Assembly: GCA_951799425.1 (NCBI GenBank)
Contig: OX637399.1
Coordinates: forward strand, 16,236,501 to 16,300,500
Direction of reading: 5' to 3'
From: Ilex aquifolium
Lineage: Eukaryota > Streptophyta > Magnoliopsida > Aquifoliales > Aquifoliaceae
DNA length: 64,000 nt
Part shown: positions 38,043-64,000 of the stretch, one piece after another
Layout: each line of letters starts with the position of its first letter
How positions within the stretch are numbered: the first letter of the stretch is position 1
Position numbers and translations under genes: made by a program
The notes under the pieces: generated by a model
What the model was told of the DNA's origin: nothing
What the model saw: only the letters and a program-made list of their open reading frames with translations
Database searches by the model: none

Positions 38043-39965
38043 CCTAGGGTTGTATATGAAATGGGTAAAATGATTAGAGATGAATTGTCTTGTTTAGCAT
38101 ACACCTAGTGTAGCTAGAATTTGAAAAATGGGTATGAGAGTATGTTTAAACCAATTCTTGCATGATTTGGGTTTGATGAGATTGCTTGGTTTGGGTTTCA
38201 TGAAATGGATTGTTGGGCATGCTATGTGTTTACATATTTTTGCCCACTAAGTGTTTGATAAAATGCTTAGGAATCTAAGTATGTTGTTTGGATTGAAAAT
38301 GCTATAACATGCTTAGTGATGTTATGAAATGTTATTTAATGCTTTATGATATAATTGACACTTGAGGAATTTGGGTATGATTGTGGATAATAGATATGTT
38401 CATTATATGTCGTATGATATGATGAGCATGGGATAGAAATTGTAATTGTACAATTTTATTGCATATGCACGAGTAACATCGCATTCATAGGCATTCGACG
38501 TGAGTGTAGGGGTGTGTGTGCATGTTTTTGATCAAACATCATCCTTGGTGGGTTGATACGTGGGCTCGGGAAAGTTGAACCTAGGTTCGACTGAGTCACA
38601 CAGGTTGCATTAAAAATATGTGTAGGGTTAGCAAAAAAGGCTAGATTCTCCCTCAGGTGCAAGACCCGGTAATTTCATATACCCACTCCCATTAGTATTG
38701 AGTCCATAAAATGTGTCGGTGTATATGAAACCGTTGGTAGAAGTTCATAGATGTCATGTCGATTGGGTACCCGTTGGTGGAAGTCCATAAATACCTACCC
38801 CAAGAAAGACACAAGATTTTATAAAATGGTCATTGGATGTCTAACGTCAATGGCGAGGGCTTGGAATGCCCAGATGCATACGCATGACATGACATGTGTT
38901 ATGGGAGCCGGTGGAGGGCTCGAGTTTGCATTGCATGCGTGAGTTCATCTCATGACATGACATAAAATAGTAGCATTCATTTATGACATGTATGTATTTG
39001 AATGGATGCTTGATGTGATAAATTGCATGTGACATTTTATATGCATCTGGGTTGGGGAATAACCTCCTTAGGAGATACTCTATTGAGCGTATCTCATCCT
39101 TTATGGGGATATATATTTCAGGTGTTGGACAAGCCTCAGCAGATGGCCCTCACTTGGGCCCGTGTTGAAGAAAGAGTTGGATTGTGGTTCTAACAAAATT
39201 ACATGTTGTAATCTCATGTATATTTTGTTTTTGTCTTATATTAATCATGTACAAAACTTGTATTTTGAATAAGGCATGTAATGAGACATTATTCTTTTGT
39301 AAAACAAATGAATGAAATAGATGTTGAATTAGTTATTGGGTTAAAAGTAAGATTTTGTAGAGTTTGGGGGAAATCTGGGCTCTAGGTACCGGTACCTCAC
39401 AGGTACCTGGCATCCGGAGAGCTCAAGTACCGATACCTAGGCTCACAGGTACCGGTACCCCGATGGACAGTGGGCTCAGGTACTAGTACCTATACTCACA
39501 AGTATGGGTACCCCCGAAGATAATGGGCCCAGGTACTGGTACCAATGCTTACAGGTACTGGTACCAATGCTTACAGGTACTGGTACCTAACAAATAGAAG
39601 GCTCAGGTACCGGTACCACATATCTGAGGTACCGGTATCTCTTCCAAAAACTTGAAAATTTGAAATGTAACATTGTCGAGCCTTCACATCTTGAACAATC
39701 TTCTTTGGATGATATAAATGGATAATAATACGTCCTAAACTTTGTGATTTGGACATTGGAATGGTCTTATGAATAATATATAAACAGATTATGCGTTGGG
39801 TAGCGCTTCCATGCAAAGGAGGCTCTGCCCGGACTCCATTTGCTATAATCCTGGTGAATGGGGTGTAACAACGTGGTATTGGGTTATACAGTAGCCACGG
39901 GTATTTCACGGGTTGATGGGTGATCAACGGGTTAAGAAAGGACCCCCAGATTTTGGGGCGTCACA
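38043..39965 (+). repeat. Left LTR of the chromovirus, 5'-truncated
   Basis: It aligns with 47431-49096 from CCTA(G/A)GGTTGTATATGAAATG to TTTTGGGGCGTCACA. It carries about 230 bp (38173-38400) that the right LTR lacks. Sequence left of 38043 does not match the first 700 bp of the right LTR. Confidence 0.85.
39383..39640 (+). repeat. GGTACCGGTACC palindrome array in the left LTR
   Basis: About ten copies of (A/G)GGTAC(C/T)(G/A)GTACC cores, spaced by AGGCTCACA- or GGGCTC-type linkers. Some copies have decayed (ACTAGTACC, GTATGGGTACC). The matching array in the right LTR is shorter. Confidence 0.9.
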
Positions 39966-39968
39966 ATT

Positions 39969-39980
39969 TGGTATCAGAGC
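39969..39980 (+). promoter_or_regulatory. Primer-binding site of the chromovirus
   Basis: An exact TGGTATCAGAGC, complementary to the plant initiator-Met tRNA 3' end, three bases after the left LTR. Confidence 0.9.
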
Positions 39981-40319
39981 TTAGGTTCCCAATTACCTTG
40001 GACTTGAGGATAGATTGGGTTAAGCCACTGCATTCATGATGCATTACATGTAATGTACATTAAATGCTACATGTTGTGTGATATGTGATTATATGCATGA
40101 TTGAATGTGTATGGGAATGAGACACTTGGGTTAGAAAACATAAACTTGGGGAAGGAAAAAGAAAGAATGGGAATGTTTACGGTTTGGGCATCTGCTAGTA
40201 GGTGACATACCTCCTACCAGAGAGACGAGGGGAAGTTAAATTTTCAAATTTGTAACTTTGATCCCTGACTTTGGGATACTAAGTTAGTGGTATATTGCTA
40301 TATTACGTGTGTGTAGATA

Positions 40320-43100
40320 ACAAATAGAGGAAAAGGACATCGCAACGGTCAAGGGGATGGACGGAACAACCAACCACCACCACCACCGGCCTTTGATCAA
40401 CAAGTCTTTATAGAGGCTATGGACACAATGGATGCTACCTTTGTATAAGTCAGTGCCAACATAGGCCAGGGAGGCTCGAATAACCTCCAAAAGTTTAGGC
40501 ACACAAGCCACCGACTTTTATGGGAGGGGCGGATTCGGTGGTGGCTGACCATTGGTTCCAACAACAAGTAGACAAGATCTTGGAGGCTATGGAGGTGACA
40601 TCCGATGCCACCAAGATAGGACTAGACACATTACAGCTTGAGGGAGAGACTCATCTATGGTGGAATTAGGCAAAGGCCTCAAAGAATGTTGAGGCAATGA
40701 CTTGAGAAGATTTTCGTGAGCTCTTTTGGGCAAGTATTTCCCATCGTCTATTCTGCAAGTGAAAGCCTAGGAATTCTTGGATCTAAAGTAAGGGACTATG
40801 ACGGTGATGGAATACGTGGCTAAGTTCATCGAGCTATCCCCTTTTTCCGATGACTAGGTGACCACTGACTTGGTCAAAGTAAGAAGATTTGAGGATGGCT
40901 TGAAGTTGTCCATTGGGGGAAAGATTGTAGGCCACCGCCTACAAGACCAATACTCGATGGTCGAGACGGCTGATGAGCACGTAATATTGCATATTTAACA
41001 GCCTCATTACATGCACTTTAACTCAACTTTGCATTTAATTATTTAGAGTTAGTCGAATTTGTGAATAATGTGAAAATTTTGATGTTACAAGTAATCATAG
41101 GGTAATTGATGGCTTTCGGAACCCTACAACTAATTGTAGATGAGTGGTGAAGAGATGGACACATTACATAAGGATTTAGAGGCTTAAAAGTGAAATAAAT
41201 CAAGGAGGTATCAGTACCTGGTATCATAGGTACCGGAATTCACACCATTTGGTATTGGTACCCCGGTATTTTACATTTTTGACCATGGTCCACTTCAAAT
41301 TTGAAAAAGTGTAAAAAATGAAATTTGTAGATATGGATATCCTCTATTTTTTGTCAAAATTTCAGCTCAATCAGACGGTAGAATCAAAAGTTATGACAAA
41401 TTTATGAAATCTGAAAATGAGCTACTGGTAACAGACCCCTTACGACCTAGCGATAGGAGCTTACAACCTACCGGTAGGTTACCCATGACCTACCGGTAGA
41501 ACATGCCCAGAAAGCTCAGTCACTTCTCCACACGACTCCACCAACCACGGGGGCCCACCTTTTGTCATCTAAACTATACCCTGACATTTTTAACACCCCA
41601 TGATGATCTCCTAACCCCAAAAACTTATTTTTGAAGCGTGAGGGAGTGGGGAGGAAATAGAGAGAAAGGGAGTGGTTGGAAAAGCATGGGAGGACCATGC
41701 TTTGACTAATTTTTCTTGCTTTTGTGGACAACCTCTCTCTAATCACTTCAAGTCAGCCACTCATGCCAAGAGAGAAGGTGATGGACAAAAATAAAGGGCT
41801 CCTACACACAATTGCAGATAACAATACTTTTAGAGAGAGAAGCTCCAAGGTAGAAAATGAAGTTTTAGAGAGAGAAGTTGGGTTTTTACATTTTCCTTCA
41901 CCATTTCCATTGTACTAAGCTCCATTTAACTTGTAATCTTTCCCTTTTGCACTCTAATCTATTTTATTCAAGTTATAACCAAGTTTAGCTAAGTGTCCAT
42001 GTATTTCATTTTTACATTTGGGTATTTTCTCTACAAACTTTGCATTTTGAGTATGAATATCATTTCTTTTGTAGTTTAAACTTTCTTCTACATTTATACA
42101 AGTCTATGTTTGATTTCGTCACAATGTCTTTCTCTTTCATGTTTGTTCTTGTTTTTTATCATGTATAGCTAAAATTTTAGTTGGCTAATCCAAGAGGGAT
42201 TTCCTCTTGGGTATGTGAAATAGACTTTCTTTCATTCTTCCTCGTAGTGTAAAGTGTTTAGTTCGACTAGATTGAGTGCAGACGTAGTTGTGGGCTTTTG
42301 ATACACCGTAGACTTGTCACAAGGTATGTTTTCGCCCAACAAAACTACATTAGTCCCTCACTTCCTACAAATCAATCAAACACCGAGACACCATTGGTTG
42401 AATGAAATGAGTCGATTTGGCATTCCCATTGGAATGACCTCTATGGATTATCCAACCTTAGTTACTTGCATATTTCATAACTCACAACTCACCAAACTTC
42501 AAATCACAAAGATTTTCCAATTTTCACCTTTTCACAAATCACCCTTCAAAAACATTCGACCTTGCCTTCCCTAAGGAGATGACCTTGGAATACTCATTCC
42601 AAGTAAAACACGACATCGCAAGACTCTCTCTACGATTAGGGATCAATTTTGTGCACACACACGTTTTTGTTCATCCACACACAATTTTTCCATTTCTTTC
42701 ATTGAACCCAAGGAAGAGTGACACTCACCAATCTCTATTAGCCATATACACATAATTCGGGTTCAAGTTGGACGTCGGGGAAAACAATCAAGCAACGGCT
42801 ATGGCCATTGAGAGAGAAGTAGAGACTCTAAAAGCATCCGAGAAGTGGATGCTAAGGACAAGATGAAAGAGGGTCAGTCCTCTTCCACTAGTTCGGGGAA
42901 GAAACAAAGGACATCTACCCCACAAGGGTTTCAAGAGTAGGGCGAGGCTACCAAAGCCAAGGCCAAGGTCAATCCTCCCAAGGTGGGAGAAATTTCAGGG
43001 TGCCCTATCAGGCTGGCCAGAAGACATGCTACATATGCCACCAACCGGGCCACTTGAAACGGGATTGTCTTCAGAGGCAGGAATCCTGTAACTCCCAGTC
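40320..43100 (+). pseudogene. Chromovirus gag, split by a solo LTR
   Basis: Gag text before the insertion: VADHWFQQQVDKILEAM, then LEGETHLWW, EDFRELF, VKVRRFEDGLKLSI-like in shifted frames, and GHRLQDQYSMVETA at the break (40970). After 42795 the frame resumes with AMAIEREVETL, a basic linker, then the CCHC knuckle CYICHQPGHLKRDC (43027-43068). Stops and frameshifts interrupt it. The ACGGC target duplication lies inside the coding text. Confidence 0.8.
40971..42794 (+). mobile_element. Solo LTR (1824 bp) inserted in chromovirus gag
   Basis: It starts TGATGAGCAC and ends AATCAAGCA, with a perfect 5-bp duplication ACGGC on both sides (40966-40970 and 42795-42799). No internal domain, primer site or second LTR is visible, so it is a solo LTR left by recombination. 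A close relative is at 58916-60769. ACCGGT and GGTACC cores lie at 41205-41275 and 41452-41500. The lineage is probably Gypsy of the Athila/Tat group from the TGATGAGCA start, but this is not certain; orientation is by analogy. Confidence 0.9.
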
Positions 43101-43267
43101 AACGATGGGGAATCCACAGATATTTTTTACTCCTCCCTATCCGACCATAGGCTAGGGAAGTCAATTCTAGTTTCAAGGTGCTACACAGGCCCCTACAAGG
43201 CTTACAGGCAGGGACCTAGGGGTGAGTTTTTATCATCACACAACAGACTAAGTCGGTAGATCAGTCA

Positions 43268-46200
43268 ATGATTCAAGGTATATTTTTACTCTCTCGCTTC
43301 TGGGCAACGGTGTTATTTGATTCGGGTGCATCTTACTCATTCATTTCTACATCATGTGTAAGAGATTTGGACTTAAAGGTTGAGACCTTAGAAGAGCCAT
43401 TGCATGTGAGTTCTCCCGTAGGAGCTAGGGTTTGTATTAATAAGATATGTCGAGGATGTGAGTTAGAGATCTCATAATTCAACTCACTATGGACCTTAGG
43501 GTATAGACATATCGGAGTTTGATGTCATCCTCGAGATGAATTGGTTGACAGCACACCGAGTCATCATTAATTATGATCAGAAGAAGGTCACTGCTTATAC
43601 ACCAGAGGGTGTCTACTTCAAATTTTAGGGAGAAAAACAAGATGATTTACCCCAAGTCGTGTATTACTCTAATTGGCACGAACATTTGATGGGTTGACTT
43701 GCGAGTCTTACACTTGAGGATAAGGCAAGACAGGAGTTGGGTCTACCTCAGGTAGTTTGCAACTATGCAGACGTTTTCCCAGATGAGTTATCAGGATTGC
43801 CTCCACATTGGGATATAGACTTCGCCATTGAGTTACAACCCGGTGCATTCCCCTATTTCTATGACTCCGTATAGGATGGCACCTACGGAGTTGCAAGAAT
43901 TCAAGGTCCAGTTACAAGAGTTGTTAGATAAGGGTTTTATTAGACCGAGTACCTCACCTTGGGGTACTCCAGTGTTATTTGCCAAGAAGAAGGACAGGAC
44001 CCTTAGACTATGCATTGACTATCGACAGTTGAATCGAGTTACCATCAAGAACAAGTACCTATTGTCGCCCATCGATGATCTTTTTGATCAACTGAGAAGA
44101 GCACGGGTCTACTCCAGGATAGATCTGCGCACGTGATACCATCAGTTGAGGATTAGGGAGGCTAATATCCCTAAGATGGCGTTCAGGATGCGATACTGGC
44201 ATTTTGAGTTTACAGTTATGCCTTTCGATTTGACAAATGCTCCGGTGGCATTCATGAATCTCATGCATAGGGTGTTTCAACCCTACTTATATCAGTTTGT
44301 CGTAGTCTTTATTGATGACATTCTGATCTACTCCAATTCGAGGAGATGCATGAGGGTCACTTGAGAATCTTTCTCTAGACCTTAAGAGACCATCAGTTAT
44401 ATGTCAAGTTCAGTAAGTGTGAATTTAGACTGACGGAGGTGAAATTTTTAGGACACATGGTGTCTGCTAAGGGTGTGTTAGTGGACCCAGAGAAGGTTGA
44501 GGCAATTATGAGTTGAAAGATGCCTAAGTCAGTCTTCGAGATACGTAGTTTCTTGGGATTGGCGAGGTATTATCGGAGGTTCATTAAGGACTTCTCGTGA
44601 CTAGTTGTAGGTTGACTAGGAAAGAGGTCAAATTTCAGTGGGATGACTCATATAGGAGGGCATTCCAGGAGTGAAGAGAAGGCTTACTTCAGCTCCTATC
44701 CTTATAGTTCTAGAGAGGGATCATAGGTACACAGTTTATTGTGATACCTCAAAAGACGCACTTGGATGTGTTCTGATGCAGTCTGAGAGGGTGGTAGCTT
44801 ATGGTTCATGGCAGTTGAAGAACCATGAGCATAACTACCCCACTTACAACATGGAGTTGGCGGCTGTTGTCTTTGCCTTGATGGCATGGCGCCACTATCT
44901 ATATGGAGAGTAGTTTGAGGTGTTTTCAGACCACAAGAGTATGAAGTACATCTTTACACAGTGAGACCTCAATATGAGGTAGAACAGGTGGATGAAGTAC
45001 CTGAAGGATTATGACTTCACTTTACATTACCATCTTGGTAATGCAAATATGGTGGCTGATGTACTCAGCCGAAAGTCCCGGGGAGTCTTGGCTAGTATAG
45101 CTTCCCGAGAGTGACAGATGCTTGAGACTGTAGGATAGTTCAGGCTACACTACAGAGATCAAGCTCATGGCACTTTGGGCAGTCTAGTGGCTATGCCTTC
45201 CTTACTGAGTAAGGTGATCGAGTCCTAAGGGCAGAACATGGATATATTGTCCATCAGGGACTGGGTATAGTCAAGTACGAGTGACGAGGGCTAGGCCATT
45301 CATGCAAATGGTAGTCTTTGATTCAAGGGAAGGGTTGTGGTTCCCCAGTCTACGGATCTGAGAGAGGAGATCCTCAGGGAATTCCTTTACTCCCATTTTG
45401 TTGTACATCCTGGTAGCACGAAAATGTACCATGATCTTCGCCGCCAATATTATTGAAGTGAGATGAAGAGACATGTCGGAGATTTTGTTAGTAGGTGTCT
45501 CATATGTCAGCAGGCCAAGGTTGAGCACCAGAGACCAGCAGGGTTGCTTCAGCCTTTGGAGGTGGCTGAGTGGAAGTGGGAACACTGTCACTATGAATTT
45601 TGTGACCTACTTACCACAGACTTCGTGTGGACATGACGTGGTGTGGGTGATCGTGGACCGACTTACGTAATCGGCACACTTTTTGGTTGTGTGGATGACC
45701 TTCACATTGGAGAAATTTTGTGGGTTGTATACACAGGAGATAATTCGGTTGCACGGGGTACCCGTATCTATAGTATCAGATCAGGATCCCGGGTTTATGG
45801 CCCATTTCTGGGAGAGCATCCAACGGGCTATGGGAACATATTTGATGATGAGTACATCCTTTCATCCCTAGATGGACGGCCACTCAGAGAAGACCATCTA
45901 GATTTTAGAGGATATGCTTAGGGCATACGTCCTTGATCTCAAGGATAGCTGGGAGGAGCACTTACCCTTAGTGGAGTTCGCCTACAACAATAGTTACCAA
46001 ACGAGCATACAGATGGCACCCTATTAGGCACTTTATAGGAAGTCATACCATTCTCTGGTATGTTGGGCGGAGGTTAGAGAGGGAACTTCCACATGTCCGG
46101 ATTTGATTAAGGACACCTCAGTGAAAGTGGACTTGATACGGAAGCGTCTTCTTACGGCTCAGAGCCGACAAGCGACGGAGACCTCTAGAGTTCGATGTTG

Positions 46201-46620
46201 GGGATCACGTCTTCTTGAAGGTTATGCCCAAGGGGAGTGGTCAGGCTCGGGAAGCGAAAAAAACTATTGCCAATGTATATCGGGCCCTTCGAGGCACTCG
46301 AGAGAGTTGGTACAGTTGCTTACCGGTTGGTATTACCGCCAAATTTATCAGGTGTTCATGCGGTGTTCTATGTCTCCATGCTTCGAAAGTACACTCCAGA
46401 TCCTACACATGTGGTGGATTGAGGTGAGCTGGTTGTTGATGCGGATGAGAACTTCTAGGAGGGACCGGTGCGTATCATGGATAGCCGAGAGCAAGTTTTG
46501 CGTGGCAAGACTATAAGGTTGGTGAAGGTGTTGTGATAGCACCTAGTATGGAGGAGGCGACATAAGAGCGTGAGGACACTATCCTTACTACCTACCCGTT
46601 CCTATTTGAGGATGTAGGTA
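43268..46620 (+). pseudogene. Chromovirus pol: protease, RT, RNase H, integrase, chromodomain
   Basis: Protease: ATVLFDSGASYSFIS (DSGA, near 43320). [50 protein letters not shown], a stop at the RT.YHQLRI step, [17 protein letters not shown] and [11 protein letters not shown] (FIDD catalytic pair, near 44310). RNase [45 protein letters not shown]. Integrase: HFVVHPGSTKMYHDL and CLICQQAK (HHCC zinc site), VSDQDPGF, HSERTI, LVEFAYNNSYQ. Tail: GVHAVFYVSMLRKYTPDP, then EGPVRIMDSREQVLR and EEAT.ERE...YPFLFED, the decayed chromodomain of the Tekay type. Numerous in-frame stops show it is dead. Confidence 0.92.
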
Positions 46621-46713
46621 CATTTCTTGTAGTTATAAAGTAGTACATGACTTGTTGCATATGAATTTTGTTACATGTGCAAGTATGTGTAATTTCGGGT
46701 ACAAAATTCCTTT

Positions 46714-46726
46714 AAGAGGGGAAGAA
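46714..46726 (+). promoter_or_regulatory. Polypurine tract of the chromovirus
   Basis: AAGAGGGGAAGAA sits directly before the right LTR start TGTAAAATCC, as needed for plus-strand priming. Confidence 0.8.
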
Positions 46727-49096
46727 TGTAAAATCCGAAAAAATTAAAACTTTATTACAAAGGGCAAAATGCAAATTAACCGTTATGGTACGGGTTAAAA
46801 ACTTGAATTTTTTTAGAACTCGAATGTCAAAACGGACATCGCCGTTGGATTCACATTGTGAAATCTAACTACCAAGGCAGTCTTCGTTAAATTTCGAGAC
46901 AGTTGGATTTTTTTGCGTTTTACGATCGGGTGTCGCGCAACTAAAATAAATGCGATCAAATTTTATTCGTGAAACCCGAGAAATAATTTAAAGTTAGTTC
47001 AATAAAAATGTACTAAAATTAACACGGGACGAGATTTAATTAATTTGGGATAAAATTGGATCAAAAAAATCGAAACGTATGGCGCAACGAGGGCCAAGTA
47101 TTTGAGGAGTATTAGATTCTTCCCCATTATTCAGCCCATTTCCGGAAATAAGAGAAGAAGAGAAGAGAGAGAAAAACCAAGCTTTCTCACCTTCTTCCTC
47201 CGATCTACAACGATTCGATCGTCGGATTGCTTTGAGCCAAGAATTGAAGTCGTTCTACGCAGTGAGACCTACAAAACTATACCAACGATGGTGAATTTTG
47301 CCAAAATCTCAAGAACGGGAGTTTCAGGATAAAGCTTTGGAAGCTTGATTTGGGATCTTTGGGACTCCCTCTACACGTATATACGCTATAAGAGGTAGAG
47401 TTCTTTTCCTAACTAGGTTTTTTTTTTTAACCTAAGGTTGTATATGAAATGGGTAGGATGATTAGAGATGAATTGTCTTGTTTAGCATACACCTAGTGTT
47501 GCTAGAATATGGAAAATGGGTATGAGAGTATGTTTAAACCAATTCTTGCATGATTTGGGTTCATTATATATCGTATGATATGATGAGCATGGAATAGAAA
47601 TTGCAATTGTACAATTTGATTGCATAATTATATGAAATGTAATTGTACATTACATTTGCATATGCACGGATAACATCGCATTCATGGGCATTCGATGTGA
47701 GTGTGGGTATGTGTGCATGTTTTTTGTCAAACACCATCCTTGGTGGGATGATACGTGGGCTCGAAAAAATTGGACCTAGGTTTGACTGAATCGCATGGGT
47801 TCCATTGAAAATATGTGTCGAGATTAACAAGAAGGGCTAGATTCTCCCTCGGGTGCAAGACATGGTAGTTTCGGATACGCATTCCCATTGGTATTGAGTC
47901 CATAAAGTGTGTTGATATGCGCGGAACCGTTGGTGAAAGTCCACAGATGTCGTGTCGATTGGGTACCAATTGGTGGAAGTCCATAAATACCCACCCCAAG
48001 AAAGACACAAGATTTTATAAAATGGTCATTGGATGTCCAACATCAATGGCGGGGGCATGGAATGTCTGAATGTATATGCATGGCATGACATGTGTTATGG
48101 GAGTTGGTGGAGGACTCGGGTTTACATTGCATGCGTGAGATCATCTCATGATATGACATGAAATAGTAGCATTCATTTATGACATATATGTATTTGAATG
48201 GATGTTTGATGTGATAAATTGCATGTGACATTTTATAAGCATCTGGGTTGGGGAATAGCCTCCTTAGGAGATACCCTATTGAGCATAGCTCACCCTTTAT
48301 GGGGATATATATATTTTAGGTGTTGGACAAGCCTGAGCGGACGGCCCTCACTTGGGCCCTGTTAAAGAAAGAGTCGGGTTATGTTCTAACAAAATTACAT
48401 GTTGTAATCTCATGTACACTTTGTTTTGGTCTTGTATTAATCATGTACAAAACTTGTATTTTGACTAAGGCATGTAATGGGACATTATTCTTTTGTAAAA
48501 CAAATTATTGGAATAGATGTTGAATGATTTAATTGGTTAAAAGTAGGATTTTGTAGAGTTTAAGGGAAATCTGGGCTCTAGGTACAGGTACCTAACAAGT
48601 ACCTGGCATCCAGAGACCTCAGGTACCGGTACCTAGGCTCACAGGTACCAGTACCCCAATGGATACTGGGCTCAGGTACCGGTACCCCGTAGACAGTGGG
48701 TCTTACAGGTACCAGTACTTGACAAACAGAAGGCTCACGTACCAGTACCACTTATCTGGGTACCGGTTCCTCTTCCAAAAACTTAAAAATTTGAAATGTA
48801 ACATTGTTGAGCCTTCATATCTTGAACGCTCTTTTTTAGATGATGTAAATAGATAATAATAAGTCCTAAACTTTTGGGTTTGCACTTTGGAATGGTCCTA
48901 TGAATAATATGTAAACAGGTTATGTGTTTGGTAGTGCTTCCGCGCAAAGGAGGCTCTGCCCAGACTCAGTTTGTTATCATCCCGGTGAATGGGGTATAAC
49001 GACGTGGTATCGGGTTATACAGTAACCACAGGTATTCCACGGGTTAATGGGTGATCAACAGGTTGAGAAAGGACCCCCGAATTTTGGGGCGTCACA
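46727..49096 (+). repeat. Right LTR of the chromovirus
   Basis: A complete LTR of 2370 bp, TGTAAAATCC ... GGGCGTCACA. It contains purine-rich promoter-side text near 47150, the region shared with the left LTR from 47431, and the palindrome array at 48579-48770. Confidence 0.88.
48579..48770 (+). repeat. GGTACCGGTACC palindrome array in the right LTR
   Basis: Shorter than its partner at 39383-39640 (about 192 against 258 bp), with some units lost and others changed. The flanks align closely. Confidence 0.88.
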
Positions 49097-50945: not shown

Positions 50946-50948
50946 CTT

Positions 50949-53348: not shown

Positions 53349-56300
53349 TGTGAGACCCGAGCATTCATAACATTGCATTTCATAAATATGGTGGGTCAAA
53401 GTGTAATTTGTTAATATTTGTGTGGAGTTAGAATTGTGAGAATTAAACCTTGAAAATTAGATATGTTTCTAACTAAAGAACTTTATGGTTGTATTTCAAT
53501 GAGATAGAGAGTATGAATGGGAATTAATTAAAGTGTCAGACATTTGGGTGTAAATCATTAAGTGATTTAAATTATGGGTTGTTTGTGTGAGCAAGGGAAA
53601 CAAAAGGGGGACTTGGTGTATTTATGGTTAGATAGGTGAGTCATAAGAGACAATCGTCTCTTCCTCAATCTATTTCCTTCTATATATATATATATATGTA
53701 TGTATGTATGTATATATTGTTATGTATGTATGTGTGTTTGACATAAGAAGGAAGAGAGAGAGAGAGAGAGAGAGAGGGAAAAGGTCAAAGAAATTCAAGG
53801 GAGAAAGAAATTTAGAAGAATTTTTTGGAAGTAACTTCTTTTGGTAAGTAAATGTCTTGAAAATTCATGTGTTTTACTATTAAAAGCATGAGTTGGGTTT
53901 TGGGTGTTGAATTATGATTGTGAGGGATGGTTTGGGTTTTGGTTGTAATTGTGATAAGGGTATGTTATTTGTATGGTTTTCCATGAAAAACATGGTTAAG
54001 ATTGATGGTTGGTGTTGGAAATTTTGGGGTTGAAGAGAAGGAAGAAGAAGGAATTAAAATAGGGTTTTGTCAAACTTCTACCAGTAGAAAGTGAAAACCT
54101 ATTGGTAGGACGATGTTCTATTAAGGTTTCTATCGGTAGAAAGTGAAAACCTACCGGTAGAACAATATTCTGTGAGGTGTTCTACCGGTAGGAAGTAAAG
54201 ATCTACCAGTAGGATGCAACTCTGACAGACTACTACAGGTAGACAGAGGTGACCTACCGAAAGAATAATATACTGTGAGATGTTCTCCCGGTAGGACTTC
54301 TATTGATCTACCGGTAGGAACATGAACTATCACTATTTTGTCGTATCATATATGATTCATTGTCCACTCAACCTCAAACCTTCTTTATGGATTTTAATGG
54401 GTTTGAATCAATTGTAATTGGTTTTATTTATCTACTAAAACCTCAGCAAACCTAAGGATTCGATATACGATAGTAAATGAAAGGGGTGTTAAGAAAGTAT
54501 TGGGCTAAGCCTGATTAATCACTCATGCATGTGTAGCATAATATCATATATTTGTAAATGATATTTATGAGATCTATGGTGGTGCGTGTTAGGTGCAAAT
54601 ACGACGATGCCAACGTCGGATTCACCTAAGACAACCTAAAAGGATTGAGTCCGGGTAGGAATTTAACCCAAGGTGAGTGTGCTTTTTCATGTGACAAACA
54701 ATAATTAAAATATGCCTATGTGTTATTATGTGTGAGTGTGATACTGTGATGATTATTGATCTCTAATTGGTATGTGGCTTGGAGATAGTAAAAGTAGTCC
54801 CTATGGCTAACATCAATTTTTAGTATCAAATATGTGGTAAGTTATTATTTGACAATGATTATGTGAGGGGCTTAAAACCTTATTGATGTGCAAAGAGCCT
54901 ATTGGCTAGTATAGCCCATGAAGGGCAATTGTTTGGCCTTAGTGACAATTTTTTGCCATAGTGGCGTTATTATGCCTAAGTGGCAAAGTGAGCCTAGATG
55001 GCATAAATATAGCCTAAATGGCTAAGTTGTGGCCTTAGTTGAGAATAAATATGAATATGTGAAAGTACAATGTGTGATGGTTTGTTAATATTATCTATTG
55101 ATACTTACAAGTTAAAATGCTAGTGCGTGAAGTATGTTTATTTGTAAAATAAAAAATGTAGATTCATTGAGCGTGTTGTGCTCACTCCCCTACAATTTGT
55201 GGTTTTCAAGGAACTGGGAGAAGAATGAAGTCCATTACTGAGTGCTAGAGAGTCGGGGAATCTGGAGTTGAGAAATGATGTCAAATTTTATAAACGTTTA
55301 GACATGTAAATTTATATTATTATCAGATGTAGAGTTTAAGTACGTTGATTTAGGGTTGAACAAGGTTTTAATGTAAATGTATGAATTTATTTTTTTGTAA
55401 ATGGGCTATGCGAGTATATGTGAGTATGTTGGTTGTTGTCTGTGCCATGAAATATTTAATATCTTGCACAGAGTGACAGGTTCATGAAGTTTGTGTTTCA
55501 GAGACGTTTAAACTTGAGAAAGGGGCTAGATAAGTTTATAAATATTTTTTAGGTCAAAATAAGGCCATCAGTGAATTGGGAAGGTCGAGAAATCTTTGGA
55601 TACGTAATATGAGGTATATTAGAAGTTAGAAAGTATTTTGGAGTTAAAACATATTTTGGAGAGAATTCGGATAGGAAGAAATTAGACACTACTTTAGTAT
55701 TTTGCCTATAACTTTTTATCCCAATGTCCGAATGATCTGAAATTTGGATAGTAGAAAGTAGACTTCAAGGGCTACAAAAATATATTTCACAAAATTTTCT
55801 CCGTTTTTCACCTTATATATACCCTAGGGCCGCAATTTGACATTCTTTTATCTGCTTTTCACTCCCAACAAGCCTAATAACTTCTAAGAGCAAGAAAAAG
55901 AGGAAGAATGAGGGGCACACGCGAAGGATTAACACACGGGGATTGTGTCAAATACACGTAGCAACACACAATCACTATATTAGAGGTAGGTAATTCTTCT
56001 CAAGTTCTTTCATTGAGTCTTAGGGTGTTATTTATGTATGTTTTGAAACTTCTAGACTATTTTATGTTAACTAACTGTTCGTTCTTGATTCTTTTTTGAG
56101 TAACATGTGGTTTTCAACTAGATACGGGCCTCCCATTCAAGAAACATTGTTCTTAAATTTTCAAAACCCTAGTTTTTCCTAAACACATGTTTTATGGTGA
56201 AAGACCTATTGATTCTGAAATTCAAAAATTCCTATTATTGATTAAATTAGGTTTTCAATTAACTACTTTTTCTTGTTCAAAGAAATTGTGATTTTCGGAA

Positions 56301-56685
56301 CCCTAGAATTTGGATATCAATATTATGAGGCTTCTTGTTATGACCTCTTGCATATTGTTATTCCTTTATTATTATAGTTTATTAGGAACTGTGAAATTGT
56401 AATACTTGAATTGTTTATGAAAATTGTGATTGGTTAAGACTACGGCTGTTGTGGAAGTTATGGTTTAATCTCTTGTATGGTTTGGGTGTGATGGACTTGA
56501 ATTGCCTTCGAGAGTTATCGTTGAGCTATGGCTTTTAGAGACTTAAGATAGGTCAGTCATGAGCATGAGTTTTTTTACATTTATTGATGGCCTATCATAA
56601 AGTACTCTGTTATTTTTTTGTTGACTTTTTATCTTCTATTGACTTTTACTTGTTTTAGCTCTAATTTGTTTGTAGTTTGTTGTGA
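53349..56685 (+). repeat. Gypsy LTR-derived sequence
   Basis: It begins TGTGAGACCCGAG, an LTR-like start. It contains microsatellites (TA/TG at 53681-53730, GA at 53753-53776), a CTACCGGTAG array, and text resembling chromovirus LTRs (TTGAGCGTGTTGTGCTCACTCC near 55165, parallel to ATTGAGCGTATCTCATCC at 39082). No coding domain was found. The right border and number of insertions are not resolved. Confidence 0.4.
54077..54320. repeat. CTACCGGTAG palindrome array
   Basis: Ten copies of a CTACCGGTAG-like core, four intact in CTACCGGTAG form and the rest one or two bases off (CTACCAGTAG, CTATTGGTAG, CTATCGGTAG, CTACAGGTAG). They are spaced about 20-30 bp, with linkers such as AAAGTGAAAAC. Confidence 0.92.
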
Positions 56686-56979
56686 TGTACTGTGACGCCC
56701 CAAAATCCGGGGGTCCTGTATTAACCGTTGACAACCCGTCAACCCGCGAAAATACCCGTGGATGTCGCTTAACCCGATACCGCGGCACCACATTCCCTTT
56801 ACCGGGATAAAAGAAAAATACAAGTCCAATTTCTTTCGGTAGGTTGACCTATCCGAGATCCAATATACCACCATTGGTATCCCCTTATTATCCATTTGTA
56901 ACATTAGGAGGGAGGAAAACATAGTCCAAGAACTTGGCAAAAGAAAAAGAAAATAAAAAAAATTCTGAAGTTTGGAGAG

Positions 56980-57080
56980 CGTACCGGTACGCGTACCGAT
57001 ACGCTACGACCTCTGGACCTGATCGTACCGGTACGCGTACCGGTACGCTACACCTTCTGGACCCTAGCGTACCGGTACGC
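56980..57080. repeat. GTACCGGTACGC palindrome array
   Basis: Five copies of GTACCG(G/A)TACGC in about 100 bp, two of them as back-to-back GTACCGGTAC-GC-GTACCG pairs, separated by CTCTGGACC-type linkers. Confidence 0.92.
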
Positions 57081-58915
57081 CTGGCCCAGAATTTTCCTTT
57101 TTACCTGATTTTCGTTTCCAAGCCATTCCAAACCTCCCAAAACTCATCCAACACATGTTTAATGAGATTTTCCATATAATACATAACTTATACAAGTTCC
57201 ATTACAATTAATTCCATAATTTACACATCAAAATGGAATTTATACAAAAGTTTTACAAAAACTCGAACTAAGGTCACAAGCCGGCCCCCTTCATGCTTGA
57301 TGCTCTCCAAGTGAGCCATCCGCCGGTGCAAACCCCACACCTGAAATGTTTCCCGTATAGGGTGAGCCAACGCCCAGTAGAGTAAATCCTACAAGGGCTA
57401 CTCTCCCCCTAAATGCTCATGCTCATGCAACATTCATTTGCAAACAACCATTTCTCATAAGAACATGCATTCTAAGTTGGAATGCAATACTACCATGCCA
57501 TGAAATGAGATGACACCCACTCATGCAATTCAACCCGAGTCCTCTCCGACTCCTACTACACGATGCAATGTCAAAGTGTTTCATTCCGTCATTTATGTTT
57601 ACATCAAATGACATTTTCAAAACTAGGGTCATTCTTGGGATCGGACTTCTTCATGGGCTCAATACCAATGGTCTTCCACACCCGTACACTTTATGGGCTC
57701 TTATACCAACGGAGTGCACCCTCCAAATCACCGGGTCTTTCACCCGAGAGGTCGTCATGCCTCTTCTTGCTCATCCCGACCCAATTTATCATGCAATCAA
57801 GCGGCTTAGCTAGGTCTTCGACCCAACTTTTCCCAAGCCATACCGTCAATCACCAATTGTGGCGTTGACATCAACCATGCACACACCCATGTAATGAGAT
57901 GTTTCCGTGCACATGCAATGCTATGTCCCATTGCATACCACATGATGTTCAATATGTCAAGAACAACCCATGCACAATCTCAACACATCTATGGTAAATT
58001 TATATCCTAAGCATATAAATGCCATATTCATTTCAATGTTAATATATCAACATATGCATATATCAACAAACACATCCAATCATATCAATAGCATATGATT
58101 TCACAAGTTGAACTTAACATGTTATTTCAATTAAATCAAAACAACCATTCCATTCAAGCAAGGCATTTAATCAAACACCTTCTAGGCACAATTTATAAAA
58201 CACAAAGCATTCCTCAAATTTTTCCTAAGTTACATAATAAATCACATGTAACTTCATACACCAAAATCAAGCTAGAAAATAGATTAAACCATTTCTATGC
58301 TCACTTTTCCATTTTCATAACCATAAATCTATACATGAGGGTCTATCCCTATGCATAACATATCAAGCCTTTAAACTACCAACATCTAAGGGAAGATTAC
58401 ACCAAAGTAGGGAGAACCCTACCTCTTGAAGCGTAATTCACCCGAATGAAGCTTCAAGAATACTTCCCGAGCCCAAGACTAGATTTCGCCCAAATCTCCT
58501 CCTTTGGATCTTCGGTGAAATCCCTTGCTCTTGGTGTGGTTGCGTAGCCCTCGTCGATGTGATCGACTTTAGCTCTTGGCTCGACGGAATCCGAGCGACG
58601 GAACTCCGGGAATCGACGGAGAAAGCTTGAAGATCAAGGTTTTCTCTCTTTTCTCTCTTCTCTCTCTTCTCTCTCTCTTGGCCGGCCAAACAAGAACACA
58701 AGGGGAAAGAAAATCTGATTTTCTAGATATTTACCCCTATTTATAGTTTTAAATACTCGGCCCACGTCGCGCCACGTGTCCCTCGTTTAATCGGGTCCGA
58801 TTTCGTCCCGAAACGATTCGTTTGATCCCAGTTTAAGTTCAAATTAATTTTATTTGAACTTTAACTTAATTTGAAGGAAATTTTATAAAACTTATTTATG
58901 GGGACGTTCGTAGGG

Positions 58916-60769
58916 TGATGAGCACATAATATATCATATTTGAAGGGCTCATTACATGAATTTTAACTCAACTTTTGCATTTAAGTACTTAGAGTTAGCC
59001 GAAATTATGAATAATGTTGATATTTTGATGTTGCAAGTTTTTATTGCTTAAATCATGTATTTTAGGACATTGCAACTATGTTGGATGTGTGGTGAAGGCA
59101 TGGACACAATACATGAAGAATTGGAGGCTTAAAAGTGAAGAAATCAAGAAGGCATTGGTGCTTGGGAACAAGGGCACCAGCTGCAGCAACAATTGGAAGC
59201 ACTGCCTCGGAATTCCTCCATTTTGACCATGATCTAATCAGAATTTGGAAAAGTTAAAAACATGAAAGTTGTAGATATGGGTGTCTTCTGTTTGGTGTCA
59301 AAATTTCAGCCTAATCCAACGGTTAGATCAAGAGTTATGCCGATTCTACCGAAGGTGGTCCAGTGCAGAAAAACAGTACCGGTACCTAGTACCGGTACTC
59401 CGGACCTTCTGGTCGCGAAAACAGCCTGTAACTCAACTTTGAGGCTTGGGGGTCCCACCTACACTTCTCCCACGCCTATCCCAACATTTCCTTACACATT
59501 TGCAGGCCTCCTACACTTAAGTGGAAGACTTTGAAGGCCAATGCATTGATGGAGGATGGGATAGAAGTGGGCTGCCAGGGCTATGATCTCCTAGCCTGTC
59601 AAGCCATCCATTCAGCCCTCTCTTGATGGGAGCTCGTACACACAACTAGGGGGGAGCCTCTTGGACGTTTTGGAAACTCTCTCACACCATTATATTCAGC
59701 ATTCCATTCATTTGTAAAGGGTTGGCTACCTAAGCTTAGGAGAGAGATAGAAAGCTCTAAGGAAGAAGATGAATAGTAATTTTCGTTTTTTGCATTTCCT
59801 TTCCATTGCAAGTGCTGTAAGCTTTAAACTTCTTGTATTCCTTAATCCTTGCACTTTAATCTCATCTATTTCAAGTTCATTGCAAGTTTAATCCTTTGTT
59901 CTAGCTTTCACCATTTATGTTTTCAAGTTCTTTAATTTTCAAGTTTTACATTTGGGTATTTGTTTCAATATGTGTATTATGTTCATGAATGTCATTTCTC
60001 TTTCACCTTAGCTCTTTTCTTGCAATTTCTACAAGTTCAAATCTCCATTTCTCTTCCATGTCCATTTCCTTTATGCTTGTCTTGCATTTTTAATATGAGT
60101 AGTTAGGATTTAAGTTGGTTAATCCAAGGGAAAATTCCTCTTGGGAATACCATTTTCAACTCTTCTTCATTCCTCCCTTTAGAGTCAAATGGTTCGGTTT
60201 GACGGGGTTGAGAGTGGATGAGTTGGTGAGCCTTTGATATTCCGTAGGCCTAGTCACGGTTTATGCTTAGATACTCATCAATCTCGTCCCTAGCTTCCCC
60301 CGAATCAATCGTTCATTCATGCTCAATCGGAGGAAGGCTTTGAGTTGATTTGGTATTCCCATTGGAATGAACCCTTTGGATTAGCCAACACTTGCTTTAT
60401 TTGCATTTTCATTTACAAACCAAACACAAAACTCAAACAAAAGATTTTACATTTTCTTTTCACTTTTGCAAAATCACTTTCACAAAACTCCCTTTCCTTC
60501 CCTGAGGAGACGACCTTCGAATACTCTTCCAAGTAAAACACCGACAACGAAAGACTCCTTGCGATTGGGGAGCGCTTTTGTTCATACCCGCATTTCATTC
60601 CACATATTTTGTTCATTCCACATTTCCATTCACATTTGTTGTTGCTCCTATATCTCTTGCATTATCCGGAGGGAGTGACACTCCCCCATCATTATAAGCC
60701 ACATACACACATTGAGGGTGAGGGTGATGTTTAGGGGTTAGGAAACAACACCGCATTTCCAACAAATCA
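58916..60769 (+). mobile_element. Solo LTR (1854 bp) nested in the chromovirus LTR
   Basis: It starts TGATGAGCAC and ends CAACAAATCA, with a perfect TAGGG duplication (58911-58915 and 60770-60774). It is the same family as 40971-42794: shared blocks include TTAACTCAACTTT, AAAATTTCAGC, GATATTTTGATGTT-like text and AGTAAAACAC(G/C). No internal region. It inserted after the 56691-60993 LTR was already in place. Confidence 0.9.
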
Positions 60770-60998
60770 TAGGGTGAATCGCCACGCAGTCGCCTCGAAC
60801 GACGTGCAAAATCCGACTACTTCGGAATTCGACGAAATTTGACAAGGTGACTAAATTTCGCGATACGAATTCAACAACGAACTCCGTCTCCTCATCCGAG
60901 GTCTAGAACATGAGTATTTTAAATACGCATTATAGTGGCAAATTACTATTTTGCCCTTTTTTGGAAAAAGTTCAAATTTCCCAGGTTTTTACATGTAC

Positions 60999-62719
60999 TC
61001 TTAGTCTTGTTCATTGATGTTTAACCATATTTGACTTTGACTTATATGTCTTATTTGTCGCTTGCTTAGTTTGCTTGCATGATTTGGCTAGTTGTTATGC
61101 ATTCATACCTTCTTGTTATACTATGATTCTATGTCATGATTGTTATAGGTGTTCATTGGGTAGATATTCGTAGCAAATAAGATAAAAATATGTTGGGTAA
61201 CTTGATTTTGTACGGCGTTTGTTGCATGTTGTCTGATTAACCCTAAATAATGCGTGAATGCATTAGGTTTTAAAGTTCATTGTGTGCGTAAATTAGGTTA
61301 AAACAATTAAGCTATAGAGTGTTAGGGTTAATGCATAGATTGGACATTTTGCAGGGTTTCGAGCGAAAATACAGAAATTTAGGAGGATTCAAGTGTACAA
61401 GCTAAATAAGGAAGGGGAGGCAAGTGCAATTATCAAATAAATAACAAGTCAACAACTAGGCTGCCAAAGCAAAAATCTAGAGGAATGCCACCGTCCGGAC
61501 GGTGGATGGTCCTTTAACCGCCTTAACTCTCTCTCCTCTCTCATTGGTCCAATTAAGCAACAAATTCACCTCATTGTCCAGTCAGGGTGTCTACCACCTT
61601 AAAGCCCTCTTCTGGAGCCTATAAATAGCCTACTTCAGCCATTTTTCAGAGAGATTCACCGGAGTTCAGTCCAGTGCAAGAAAGAAGAAAGGAGAGAAAG
61701 AAATAGGTGGGAAGCCCTGCCAGAATCACTTCCCAACCAAAATTTTCTCTACTTCTAGATCTATTTATCCTTTCTAATTGGAGGGTTGAACCTCTCTCAG
61801 TATTACGAGTGGCAGTGTTTCAGCTATTCCTTGGGGAAGGACTTTTGTATTTTGTTTCCGGTTGTAATTGGATTATCTGACTCCTTTTGCTCGTCTATAG
61901 CAATGAGGCGTGAGTAGTTTGGTTATACTCTTTAGTGAAGGTTGAATGCATGTGTAGTATTGTTTCCATTATGGAAATGCCGATGTTTTAGTTATGCGTT
62001 AATGTTTATACCTCCCTTGATTGATGGATGGTTACATTTATAATATGCTCTTGGTTATGAACATTGAGTAGAGCTTAATGCTATATATCATATTATCTAT
62101 GATTATTACGCACTTCATGCATGATACAATGATGTACGTAGTTGGGCTTTATGTAACAGTCGGGAGATTGGTTATAGACGGGTTAAATCTCGTCATAGCC
62201 AATACTTTTGATTCAATACATAATCCGAAACTCCGCCATCATTGAATCATCAACCTACCGATTAAATAACTAGAGTAAACATTTTGAATGGTTCACCTTC
62301 AAGTTTAATATGGTTATTTGATTGATGCATGGTACAAAGACCTTCCAGCTAACCTAATTAGTTGTTGTGTTATAGTTCAATATACATCAAACCTACCGGT
62401 TAACTTTCCAGTAAAATGGGAGTTAATTATTGTAAGGTGACATTTTCATAAACAAACAATATAATGCATGTTGGATCCCCGAACTGAAGAGTACCTTTTA
62501 TCATTGTCTTTTCAAGTTGTATTTCAATATTTATTTGATAGTTCTAAGCTCACCCCATAAGCTATTCCACTGCACATTATATCCACGACAATTTTTCCAT
62601 TTCTGTTTTGAATCCTGACAGTTAGCTCCCTGTGGGTTCGACCCCAGACTTAACCGAGAAATATTATAATTTGATCACTTATACTTGGGTGTATGATATA
62701 AATCAAGTCAGATCATTGT
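60999..62719. repeat. LTR-like block (Tat/Ogre/Athila style)
   Basis: Non-coding. A CTCCCTGTGGGTTCGACCCC motif (62627-62646) is typical near the LTR 3' end of Athila/Tat Gypsy elements. A perfect 18-bp palindrome lies at 61488-61505, ahead of a TATAAATAG-like promoter element (61620). Borders were not determined. Confidence 0.4.
61488..61505. repeat. Perfect 18-bp palindrome CCACCGTCCGGACGGTGG
   Basis: The two halves are exact reverse complements. It is a single copy within LTR-like DNA, about 130 bases upstream of a TATA-like motif. Confidence 0.97.
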
Positions 62720-63319
62720 CATTGGGTTGTCATTTGTGAAAAAAATGGAGGAGAATATTTTAGGTACATTGGGAGAAATCGGGGATTAGGGAAAATATGT
62801 TGCATGAGAACATAGAAAGAGGGAGTTTGTTCGAATACTCAGGGGGAGTAAATTTTGCAAATTTGGCATGAAGTCACACATTTTTCTCTGTTTATTTTGC
62901 ACTTGTTATTTTACTTGTGAACACCAACTAAGGAGGAGAACTTGATGTGTTTCATAATGATAAATCAATAGGTTCTCAAGCATATTGGGCAAGTTAGTTT
63001 CTAACATCTTACATATTTGCACTTGCATGATGTATACATACTTATGCCCTACGCTTAACTTGAGTTTTCTATACCTGTGATTATGTTATGTATTTCTTTA
63101 ACATATGATGCTTTTGATGAGGTTTTAGTTTGAGTGGTGGTGTGCAAGATTACGATCTTCAAGCTTCATCAAAAGAAGTAGATCCTTGTACAAGATAGAG
63201 ATTTAGGATGCATGCATGAAAGTTGAGATTAGTTTACAATTCTTTTGTTCAATGGTTTTGAGTTGTAATCTTAATTTCTAACTTGTGTGTTTTGTCACGA
63301 AATTGCCAAAGGGGGAAAT
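62720..63319 (+). other. 3' internal end of a SIRE-like Copia element
   Basis: Non-coding text with AGGGGGAG purine tracts (62842-62847) and the terminal purine tract AAAGGGGGAAA (63308-63318) just before an LTR start. The phrase TCACGAAATTGCCAAAGGGGG is shared with the minus-strand copy at about 12175-12135. Upstream coding domains are absent. Confidence 0.6.
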
Positions 63320-64000
63320 TGTTAAATCATATTTGTAATTGGCTAATTTCATGGAGTCCATTGTAAAATCTCAAGCTATTCCATGGTCATAATGCTATCA
63401 AGTTTAAGATCCAAAAGCGTCATTGAAGGGAGGAGATCGTCAAAGCTACATCATTCAACTTCCATATGCACCTTCATGCTTAGGAAAAAAGTAATGACCT
63501 AGACACCTAAGATGAACCCTTAGTTCATTTAACTTAGGTTGATTAGGATTAAAATGAAATTGGAAGCGATCCAATTATGACTCTTAAATGATTTTAAAAG
63601 AAAATTTTTTCTAAACCATTTACATTTTTTTGAAAACATAGTTTGAGTCACAATCAGACCCCTTTTTTGAACAACACCCTTTAGTGCTTAAGAGGACAAG
63701 TTTTTGCATGGTTTTAGGCATATATACCTGCAAAGACCTATCTATATTCACAAGCCTTCGATAGAGCGGTCTCTTTATGATTTAGGGAAGGAAATGGGAA
63801 AAGTCCACGGAAGGCAGCACAGGGCTCACTCTATGAGCTTGCTCCAGTGGTCTCACAGTCGCTCAAGCGATGCTCAAGGTCGCTCGAGCAGTGCCTGTCT
63901 TAGTCGTGTTTGAAATGTTATTTTCACTCCAACGACAACTGCCCTATGACCGCCCTCTACTGATCGAGCGATCGTTCATGAATTTGAGTTTTCTTATTTA
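63320..64000 (+). repeat. SIRE-like 3' LTR, cut by the window end
   Basis: It starts TGTTAAATCATATTTG after the purine tract. It is homologous to the minus-strand LTRs ending at 12127 and 25961. CGCTCAAGCG, CGCTCGAGCA and GATCGAGCGATCG cores lie at 63851-63973. The right end is outside the window. Confidence 0.65.

What the first reader, a model, noticed from the sequence alone, without database searches (positions are those of the whole stretch)
39383..63973. Palindromic hexamer arrays recur inside long LTRs of different families
At least seven LTR or LTR-like blocks here carry short perfect palindromes, often arrayed: GGTACCGGTACC (39383-39640, 48579-48770), GGTACC and CTACCGGTAGG (41205-41500), CTACCGGTAG x10 (54077-54320), GTACCGGTACGC x5 (56980-57080), AGTACCGGTAC (59375-59399), CCGTCCGGACGG (61488-61505) and CTCGAG/GATCGAGCGATC (25765-25792, 63851-63973). 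Core sequence differs between families, and even between two members of one family, while being palindromic is kept. That pattern suggests selection on, or a mechanism creating, self-complementary DNA/RNA (stem-loops, dimerisation, protein-dimer sites, recombination). I know of no named feature of plant LTRs that covers this; it is inference.
Basis: partly seen in the sequence, partly recalled or inferred. Interest (0 to 1): 0.8.

Follow-up and report, generated by a model that had tools for sequence, protein, structure and literature searches.

The report
Paired-site arrays in plant retrotransposon promoters
Several groups of jumping-gene sequences in this plant carry rows of one short mirror-symmetric DNA word in two flavours, which looks like a docking platform for an unidentified DNA-binding protein that works in pairs.

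Summary
The arrays share one core, TACCGGTA, the most over-represented 8-mer in the window (17 found, 0.57 expected). What differs is the next base pair: GTACCGGTAC or CTACCGGTAG. In the 800-Mb source genome CTACCGGTAG occurs 22,728 times against 353 for its reversed control, and GGTACCGGTACC 5,913 against 76. The asymmetric hybrid CTACCGGTAC is not enriched: 938 against 1,250. Half-sites therefore co-vary strictly. None of 36 arrays mixes the two types. Related sequences carry either type at the same place, arrays change as blocks, and one block is shared between lineages. Spacings are quantised: near multiples of 10.5 bp in GGTAG-type arrays, but not in the listed GGTAC-type places. In 8 of 36 arrays a TATA box lies 47-54 or 73-74 bp from the edge. 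Best reading: clusters of a dimeric DNA-binding site in LTR promoter regions, binder unidentified. CTCGAG and CCGTCCGGACGG are not part of it. Nearest parallels: ONSEN heat elements and VANDAL/VANC motif arrays.

The parts
38043..39965 (+). 5' LTR of element A (start = start of homology; ends in CA); Ty3 chromovirus-like
   Evidence: 83% identical to 47559-49096, and 95% for 38043-38173 vs 47431-47561; perfect 12-nt tRNA-iMet-type PBS at 39969
39386..39638 (.). Array A5, GGTAC type: 10 sites (<=2 mismatches), spacings 41,22,31,22,31,22,22,30,22
39713..39721 (+). Putative TATA box TATAAATGG, 74 bp after the array
   Evidence: same distance in L006
39969..39980 (+). Primer-binding site TGGTATCAGAGC
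   Evidence: letters recalled as tRNA-iMet PBS
40971..42794 (+). Solo LTR B1 inserted in element A; TSD ACGGC at 40966-40970 and 42795-42799
   Evidence: homologous to B2
41205..41275 (.). Decayed GGTAC-type half-sites in B1, about 150 bp before its GGTAG-type array
   Evidence: GGTAC 5, GGTAT 4, GGTAG 0; no exact core
41422..41499 (.). Array B1b, GGTAG type: 4 sites, spacings 25,21,22
42892..44913 (+). Broken gag-pro-RT-RNase H pieces of element A
   Evidence: Pfam zf-CCHC, RVP_2, RVT_1, RT_RNaseH_2 on separate pieces; the piece 43819-44136 gave no family
47431..49096 (+). 3' LTR of element A
48582..48769 (.). Array A3, GGTAC type: 7 sites, spacings 41,22,31,33,30,21
54078..54317 (.). Array C, GGTAG type: 10 sites, spacings 21,31,21,31,21,30,21,31,23; LTR status not shown
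56691..58000 (-). LTR D, 3' end at 56691; the other end is not fixed
   Evidence: 128-bp match to the end of LTR A, alignment over about 1.3 kb, 921-bp match to L006, which also matches A
56981..57078 (.). Array D, GGTAC type: 5 sites, spacings 12,32,12,32
58916..60769 (+). Solo LTR B2; TSD TAGGG at 58911-58915 and 60770-60774 (chosen among three TAGGG copies because it follows CA)
59376..59398 (.). Array B2, GGTAC type: 2 sites 13 bp apart

Best explanation
The arrays are homotypic clusters of a two-fold symmetric DNA site of about 12 bp, N-S-TACC|GGTA-S'-N', bound as double-stranded DNA by a homodimeric (or higher-order) protein. Each half-site is GGTAC or GGTAG, giving two specificity classes. 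The clusters sit in the promoter region of LTRs and serve to switch on transcription or to keep silencing away. Arrays grow, shrink, are replaced and are exchanged between elements as blocks, so related elements can change class while both halves of every site stay matched. Shown here: core, two classes, covariation, purity of arrays, block turnover, non-random spacing. Inferred: protein binding, dimer and promoter role. Unknown: which protein.
For: Enrichment: CTACCGGTAG 22,728 vs 353 control; GGTACCGGTACC 5,913 vs 76. Covariation: hybrid CTACCGGTAC 938 vs 1,250 control; systematic sample 27 of 28 exact cores symmetric at the next pair, 16 C..G, 11 G..C, 1 G..T. Purity: 0 of 36 arrays hold both types among sites with at most one mismatch; e.g. 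A5 GGTAC 30, GGTAG 0 and L009a GGTAC 0, GGTAG 15. One pair further out is also matched: in GGTAC-type sites other than GGTACCGGTACC, 40 of 83 vs 25.2 +/- 2.9 shuffled, 0 of 2,000; in GGTAG-type 13 of 21 vs 6.9. The two pairs beyond are not: 33 and 26 of 131 vs 35.1 and 34.3; 7 and 9 of 21 vs 7.9 and 6.7. Spacing: 26 deduplicated gaps among 50 listed GGTAG-type places R=0.76 at 10.75 bp, 0 of 10,000 uniform nulls. Opposite type at the same place: L009_8982 (C) vs L048 (G), flanks 87% over 439 bp; L009_4221 (C) vs D (G); B1 (C) vs B2 (G). TATA box reading away from the array 47-54 bp from its edge in 5 arrays and 73-74 bp in 3.
Against: No binding, expression or methylation data. Helical spacing is not general: the listed GGTACCGGTACC places give R=0.10 at 10.5 bp (20 gaps), and all 36 arrays together R=0.38 (104 array-spacing entries); 13 bp occurs in 17 arrays and 16 bp in 13. 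The R (0.76, 12 arrays) left out gaps under 16 and over 70 bp, is broad (0.72-0.78 from 9 to 11 bp) and treats related arrays as independent. The 12-bp limit is a pooled result: L015 has longer palindromes, up to 7 matched pairs beyond the core. 28 of 36 arrays lack a TATA box at the two distances, A3, C, D and the B group among them, and the 450-500 bp bin is as rich (12 of 65 flanks) as 50-100 bp (14 of 72). LTR B1 holds decayed GGTAC-type half-sites near its GGTAG-type array, and L009b has 1 GGTAC against 13 GGTAG. Array blocks are shared between lineages, so recurrence is partly common descent. The CCGG centre is a methylation target and decays as such (27 of 37 single changes). 22 of 36 arrays come from a GGTACCGGTACC search, and the 28 systematic cores come from few arrays, some in repeated copies.
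Confidence: 0.52

Rival explanations
1. Common descent and trading: one ancestral GGTAC-type and one GGTAG-type array were spread between LTRs by recombination; symmetry was inherited from the founders rather than kept by selection.
For: Types are pure within arrays; arrays change as blocks at otherwise homologous places; L032 and L034, whose flanks match LTR D, share array blocks with L033, L043, L047 and L049 of another group (e.g. 81% over 171 bp, L034 526-692).
Against: The outermost pair varies (GC, AT, CG) and is still matched; linkers differ widely between arrays; arrays of both types show different spacing series.
Confidence: 0.18
2. RNA-level selection: copies in the array pair with each other in the element RNA (stem-loops, dimerisation, export or packaging signal), and homogenised arrays must then be individually self-complementary.
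For: RNA folds are far more stable than shuffles: z -6.3, -5.0, -7.8, -10.1 for four arrays.
Against: Any array of repeated palindromes folds well, so the z-scores do not discriminate. It does not predict one fixed core or the spacing of GGTAG-type arrays. Arrays before a TATA box would be absent from the RNA 5' leader.
Confidence: 0.12
3. Mutational mechanism: template switching at quasi-palindromes or slippage makes and perfects palindromes; the arrays are by-products with no selected binding.
For: Arrays are tandemly repeated and unstable: A5 has a perfect 22-bp tandem of 2.6 copies and 10 sites against 7 in A3.
Against: Template switching acts on any sequence, yet among CG-containing 10-bp palindromes in 250 kb only the two TACCGGTA forms stand out, and pooled symmetry stops at 12 bp.
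Confidence: 0.1
4. Host-imposed site: the arrays are bound by a host repressor or mark a methylation nucleation site, tolerated rather than used by the element.
For: CCGG offers symmetric CG and CHG methylation; decay is mostly C-to-T or G-to-A at CCGG (27 of 37).
Against: An element would be expected to lose such sites, yet arrays persist and are exchanged in several lineages (inference).
Confidence: 0.08

Closest known systems
ONSEN heat-response elements in an Arabidopsis copia LTR (PMC3907296; abstract and passages seen)
   Same: A short, roughly symmetric motif (nTTCnnGAAn) in the LTR promoter, bound by a host factor of an oligomerising family (HSFA2).
   Different: One family, one known factor; ONSEN's promoter has no CG or CHG sites, whereas every intact site here has CCGG at its centre; here there are several lineages and two motif classes.
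VANC target motif arrays in VANDAL transposons (PMC5735166; abstract and passages seen)
   Same: Short motif arrayed at high density in non-coding parts of mobile elements; related subgroups carry different motif types (C-type, T-type); arrays gain, lose and diverge together by tandem repeat formation.
   Different: VANDAL21 motifs stand in one orientation and the binder is encoded by the element; here the motif is palindromic, the elements are LTR retrotransposons and no binder is known.
Tto1/Tnt1 LTR repeats bound by MYB-type factors (recalled; only a search listing seen)
   Same: Repeated short factor sites in the U3 of plant retrotransposons; the recalled GGTAGG-like site resembles the GGTAG class.
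   Different: As recalled, not inverted repeats with zero spacing and no GGTAC class.
Palindrome preference at LTR retrotransposon insertion sites (PMC6911290; passages seen)
   Same: Palindromes and plant LTR retrotransposons.
   Different: Concerns weak, 5-6 bp approximate palindromes at target sites, not arrays inside LTRs.

Membership tests
Ty3/gypsy chromovirus (element A) | Gag zinc knuckle, aspartic protease, RVT_1-type RT and RNase H | tested here: met
   zf-CCHC, RVP_2, RVT_1, RT_RNaseH_2 above cut-off on separate pieces; one RT-region piece gave no family
Ty3/gypsy chromovirus (element A) | tRNA-iMet primer-binding site directly after the 5' LTR | tested here: met
   12 of 12 at 39969 (PBS letters recalled)
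Ty3/gypsy chromovirus (element A) | Chromodomain at the integrase C-terminus | not tested
   A piece at 46459-46536 looks like one by eye; no profile was run on it
VANC-type target array (works like) | Dense tandem array of a short motif in non-coding TE sequence | tested here: met
   36 arrays; 25 of 28 systematic exact sites have another exact site within 120 bp
VANC-type target array (works like) | Motif variants differ between related subgroups and change together | tested here: met
VANC-type target array (works like) | Motifs arrayed in one orientation | tested here: not met
   Sites are palindromic, so have no orientation
VANC-type target array (works like) | Bound by a protein encoded by the element, with loss of methylation | not testable with these tools
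   No binding or methylation data
ONSEN-type response-element cluster (works like) | Symmetric motif cluster upstream of the transcription start | tested here: inconclusive
   TATA-like boxes at 47-54 or 73-74 bp from the edge of 8 of 36 arrays; no start-site data
ONSEN-type response-element cluster (works like) | Promoter without CG and CHG sites | tested here: not met
   Each intact site is centred on CCGG

The most novel reading that the evidence does not exclude
Several LTR retrotransposon lineages in one plant genome share and trade a two-letter recognition code (GGTAC or GGTAG dimer sites). It is read by two paralogous factors of one DNA-binding family, and elements switch between the two by replacing the whole array: a cross-family promoter or anti-silencing code with its own spacing grammar for each class.
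Probability: 0.3. Interest if true: 0.87.

Novelty: new variant of a known kind. Interest (0 to 1): 0.7.

Why it matters
If true, tens of thousands of places in retrotransposon sequence of this genome are addressed by one small set of DNA words. That gives a direct handle on which host or element protein drives or shields these elements. It would be a palindromic, LTR-retrotransposon counterpart to the VANDAL/VANC system and a natural series of two-class arrays for studying how a DNA-binding specificity and its targets change together. The absence of hybrids above background makes the dimer idea testable with oligonucleotides.

Tried and rejected
Rejected: a general excess of palindromes in LTRs. 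Among CG-containing 10-bp palindromes in 250 kb only CTACCGGTAG (16) and GTACCGGTAC (11) stand out; TGATCGATCA (6) lies in one stretch, L022. Rejected as parts: CCGTCCGGACGG and the CTCGAG items. Not used as evidence: RNA folding z-scores, since repeated palindromes fold by construction. Withdrawn: helical phasing as a rule for all arrays; it is kept for GGTAG-type places only. Considered and not accepted (recalled motifs, no call): SBP-type factors (GTAC core) explain only the GGTAC class, and R2R3-MYB AC elements (CCTACC) only part of the GGTAG class.

Led nowhere: viral contigs for an RT piece (12 pattern stretches, none confirmed) and for the LTR 3' end (0); Rfam (0); tRNA scan (0); papers by motif letters or topic (no paper on such arrays seen among the rows listed, which are capped). 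The organism was not identified.
Full report
WHAT IS IN THE WINDOW. The stated palindromes are present. Perfect palindromes of 12 bp or more with at least 40% G+C number 22 against about 3.9 in simulations. TACCGGTA is the most over-represented 8-mer of the window among words seen at least 6 times (17 found, 0.57 expected from a third-order model). All 17 lie in six arrays between 39387 and 59397. With one mismatch there are 49 hits against 12 +/- 3 in shuffles. Damaged copies in all sequence held are mostly transitions at CCGG, 27 of 37 single changes, as expected if methylated CG and CHG cytosines decay.

THE ELEMENTS. Element A has LTRs at 38043-39965 and 47431-49096, a perfect iMet-type primer site at 39969 and broken pieces matching zf-CCHC, RVP_2, RVT_1 and RNase H. 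LTR D, on the minus strand with its end at 56691, is related to A: a 128-bp match at the LTR end, an alignment over about 1.3 kb, and both match L006. Two solo LTRs, B1 (40971-42794, target duplication ACGGC) and B2 (58916-60769, TAGGG), are 70-75% alike in two blocks. B1 is inserted in A. The array at 54078-54317 and the single palindrome at 61488 could not be tied to LTR ends. So the window holds two lineages with arrays plus one unassigned array, not seven families.

TWO CLASSES. Each half-site is GGTA plus one base, and an array uses C or G there: A5 30 GGTAC to 0 GGTAG, A3 21:0, D 9:0, against C 0:13 and L009a 0:15. Of 36 arrays with two or more sites (6 in the window; 8 in systematic 10-kb stretches; 22 in loci found with GGTACCGGTACC), none holds both types among sites with at most one mismatch. 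Some of these 36 are copies of each other (L009 twice, L019 three times). Two points against purity: L009b has 1 GGTAC against 13 GGTAG half-sites, and LTR B1 carries decayed GGTAC-type half-sites about 150 bp from its GGTAG-type array.

GENOME-WIDE TEST OF HALF-SITE COVARIATION. Three searches of the source genome (800,232,872 bases) were answered. GGTACCGGTACC occurs 5,913 times against 76 for the same letters reversed. CTACCGGTAG occurs 22,728 times against 353. The hybrid CTACCGGTAC, with the same core and an allowed base on each side, occurs 434 + 504 = 938 times on the two strands against 609 + 641 = 1,250. The tool calls its counts of repeats lower bounds. The count for GTACCGGTAC could not be had. 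In the systematic sample (25 stretches, 250 kb; exact cores in 6 stretches) 27 of 28 are symmetric at the next pair: 16 C..G, 11 G..C, 1 G..T; they come from few arrays. Over all 158 exact cores held, 131 are G..C, 21 C..G, 5 G..T, 1 G..A and none a hybrid; most come from loci chosen with a symmetric pattern.

HOW FAR SYMMETRY GOES. One more pair outward is matched: 88 of 131 vs 49.3 and 13 of 21 vs 6.9. Leaving out every GGTACCGGTACC, the word used for choosing loci, 40 of 83 are matched vs 25.2 +/- 2.9 in shuffles, 0 of 2,000. The next two pairs are not matched in the pool (33 and 26 of 131 vs 35.1 and 34.3; 7 and 9 of 21 vs 7.9 and 6.7). Single arrays can go further: L015 has up to 7 matched pairs beyond the core. 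A site of about 12 bp with dyad symmetry is what a protein dimer needs.

SPACING. Gaps are quantised: over 36 arrays, 13 bp occurs in 17, 16 in 13, 21 and 22 in 6 and 9, 30, 31 and 32 in 9, 20 and 9 arrays. For GGTAG-type places, 26 deduplicated gaps among the first 50 listed on contig C1 sit at 20-24, 30-32, 43-46, 52-55, 75 and 86 bp (R=0.76 at 10.75 bp; 0 of 10,000 uniform nulls). Twelve arrays examined first gave R=0.76 at 10.5 bp for 21 deduplicated gaps of 16-70 bp (0 of 5,000). But the listed GGTACCGGTACC places give R=0.10 (20 gaps, with unlisted sites between them), and all 36 arrays together R=0.38 (104 entries; 65 within 0.2 turn of an integral number of turns). Helical phasing is thus supported for GGTAG-type arrays and not for GGTAC-type arrays in general.

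TURNOVER AND EXCHANGE. Flank comparison puts arrays of opposite class at the same place in related sequences: L009_8982 (C) vs L048 (G) with 87% identity over 439 bp of flank, L009_4221 (C) vs D (G), B1 (C) vs B2 (G). An alignment of L009_8982 with four relatives shows flank identity up to the array edge and then different class and spacing. L032 and L034, whose flanks match LTR D, share array blocks with L033, L043, L047 and L049, which match the L001/L009_8982 group (81% over 171 bp at best). So arrays change and travel as blocks, not by paired point changes at each site.

PLACE. TATA-like boxes reading away from the array lie 73-74 bp from its edge in A5, L006 and L041 and 47-54 bp away in L009_8982, L036, L039, L043 and L047. 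The other 28 of 36 arrays have none at these distances; L009_4221, L009_8495, L032, L034 and L045 have boxes at 77-126 bp, in part on the other side. The binned count alone is weak, because the 450-500 bp bin is as high. The L009_8982 group has not been shown to be an LTR.

MECHANISM. I take the arrays to be clusters of dimer sites in promoter regions, read by a protein family with two specificities, for activation or anti-silencing. Core, classes, covariation, purity, turnover and spacing are shown; binding and effect are inferred. The RNA model is not excluded, but the strong folds (z -5.0 to -10.1) follow from repeating a palindrome. Spread of founder arrays by recombination very likely contributes and may explain more than I allow.

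WHAT IS KNOWN. ONSEN (PMC3907296, abstract and passages) and VANDAL/VANC (PMC5735166, abstract and passages) are the closest in working. VANC21 targets are also arrays of a short motif whose C- and T-types mark subgroups and evolve by tandem repeat formation, but they stand in one orientation and are served by an element-encoded protein. I saw no report of TACCGGTA arrays among the rows listed, which cover open-licence papers only.

Noticed in passing
window 7160-7396: Host-gene-like open piece resembling a plastid EGY-type protease exon (recalled resemblance; no Pfam match).
   Followed up: no
window 29491-30225: Copia-type reverse transcriptase piece, RVT_2 match.
   Followed up: no
window 39940-39965, 49070-49096, 56691-56720; L006, L009: LTR 3' ends share a GGACCCCC..ATTTTGGGG.GTCACA block with an inverted CCCC/GGGG pair, conserved across lineage A.
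   Followed up: partly
B1 near 41.56 kb, B2 near 59.45 kb, L015, L019: Some tens of bp after the B-lineage arrays a GGG(N)CCCA-like motif is kept, resembling a TCP/site II promoter motif (recalled).
   Followed up: no
L019 1-10000: Near-identical (98-99%) 3.6-kb units in tandem, each with a two-site GGTAC-type array.
   Followed up: no
L022: Six copies of palindrome TGATCGATCA in one 10-kb stretch.
   Followed up: no
window 61488-61505: Single 18-bp palindrome CCACCGTCCGGACGGTGG about 115 bp before TATAAATAG at 61620; may be a separate promoter element.
   Followed up: partly
L032, L034: Array blocks shared with sequences of another group although their flanks match LTR D: a likely trace of recombination between lineages.
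   Followed up: partly
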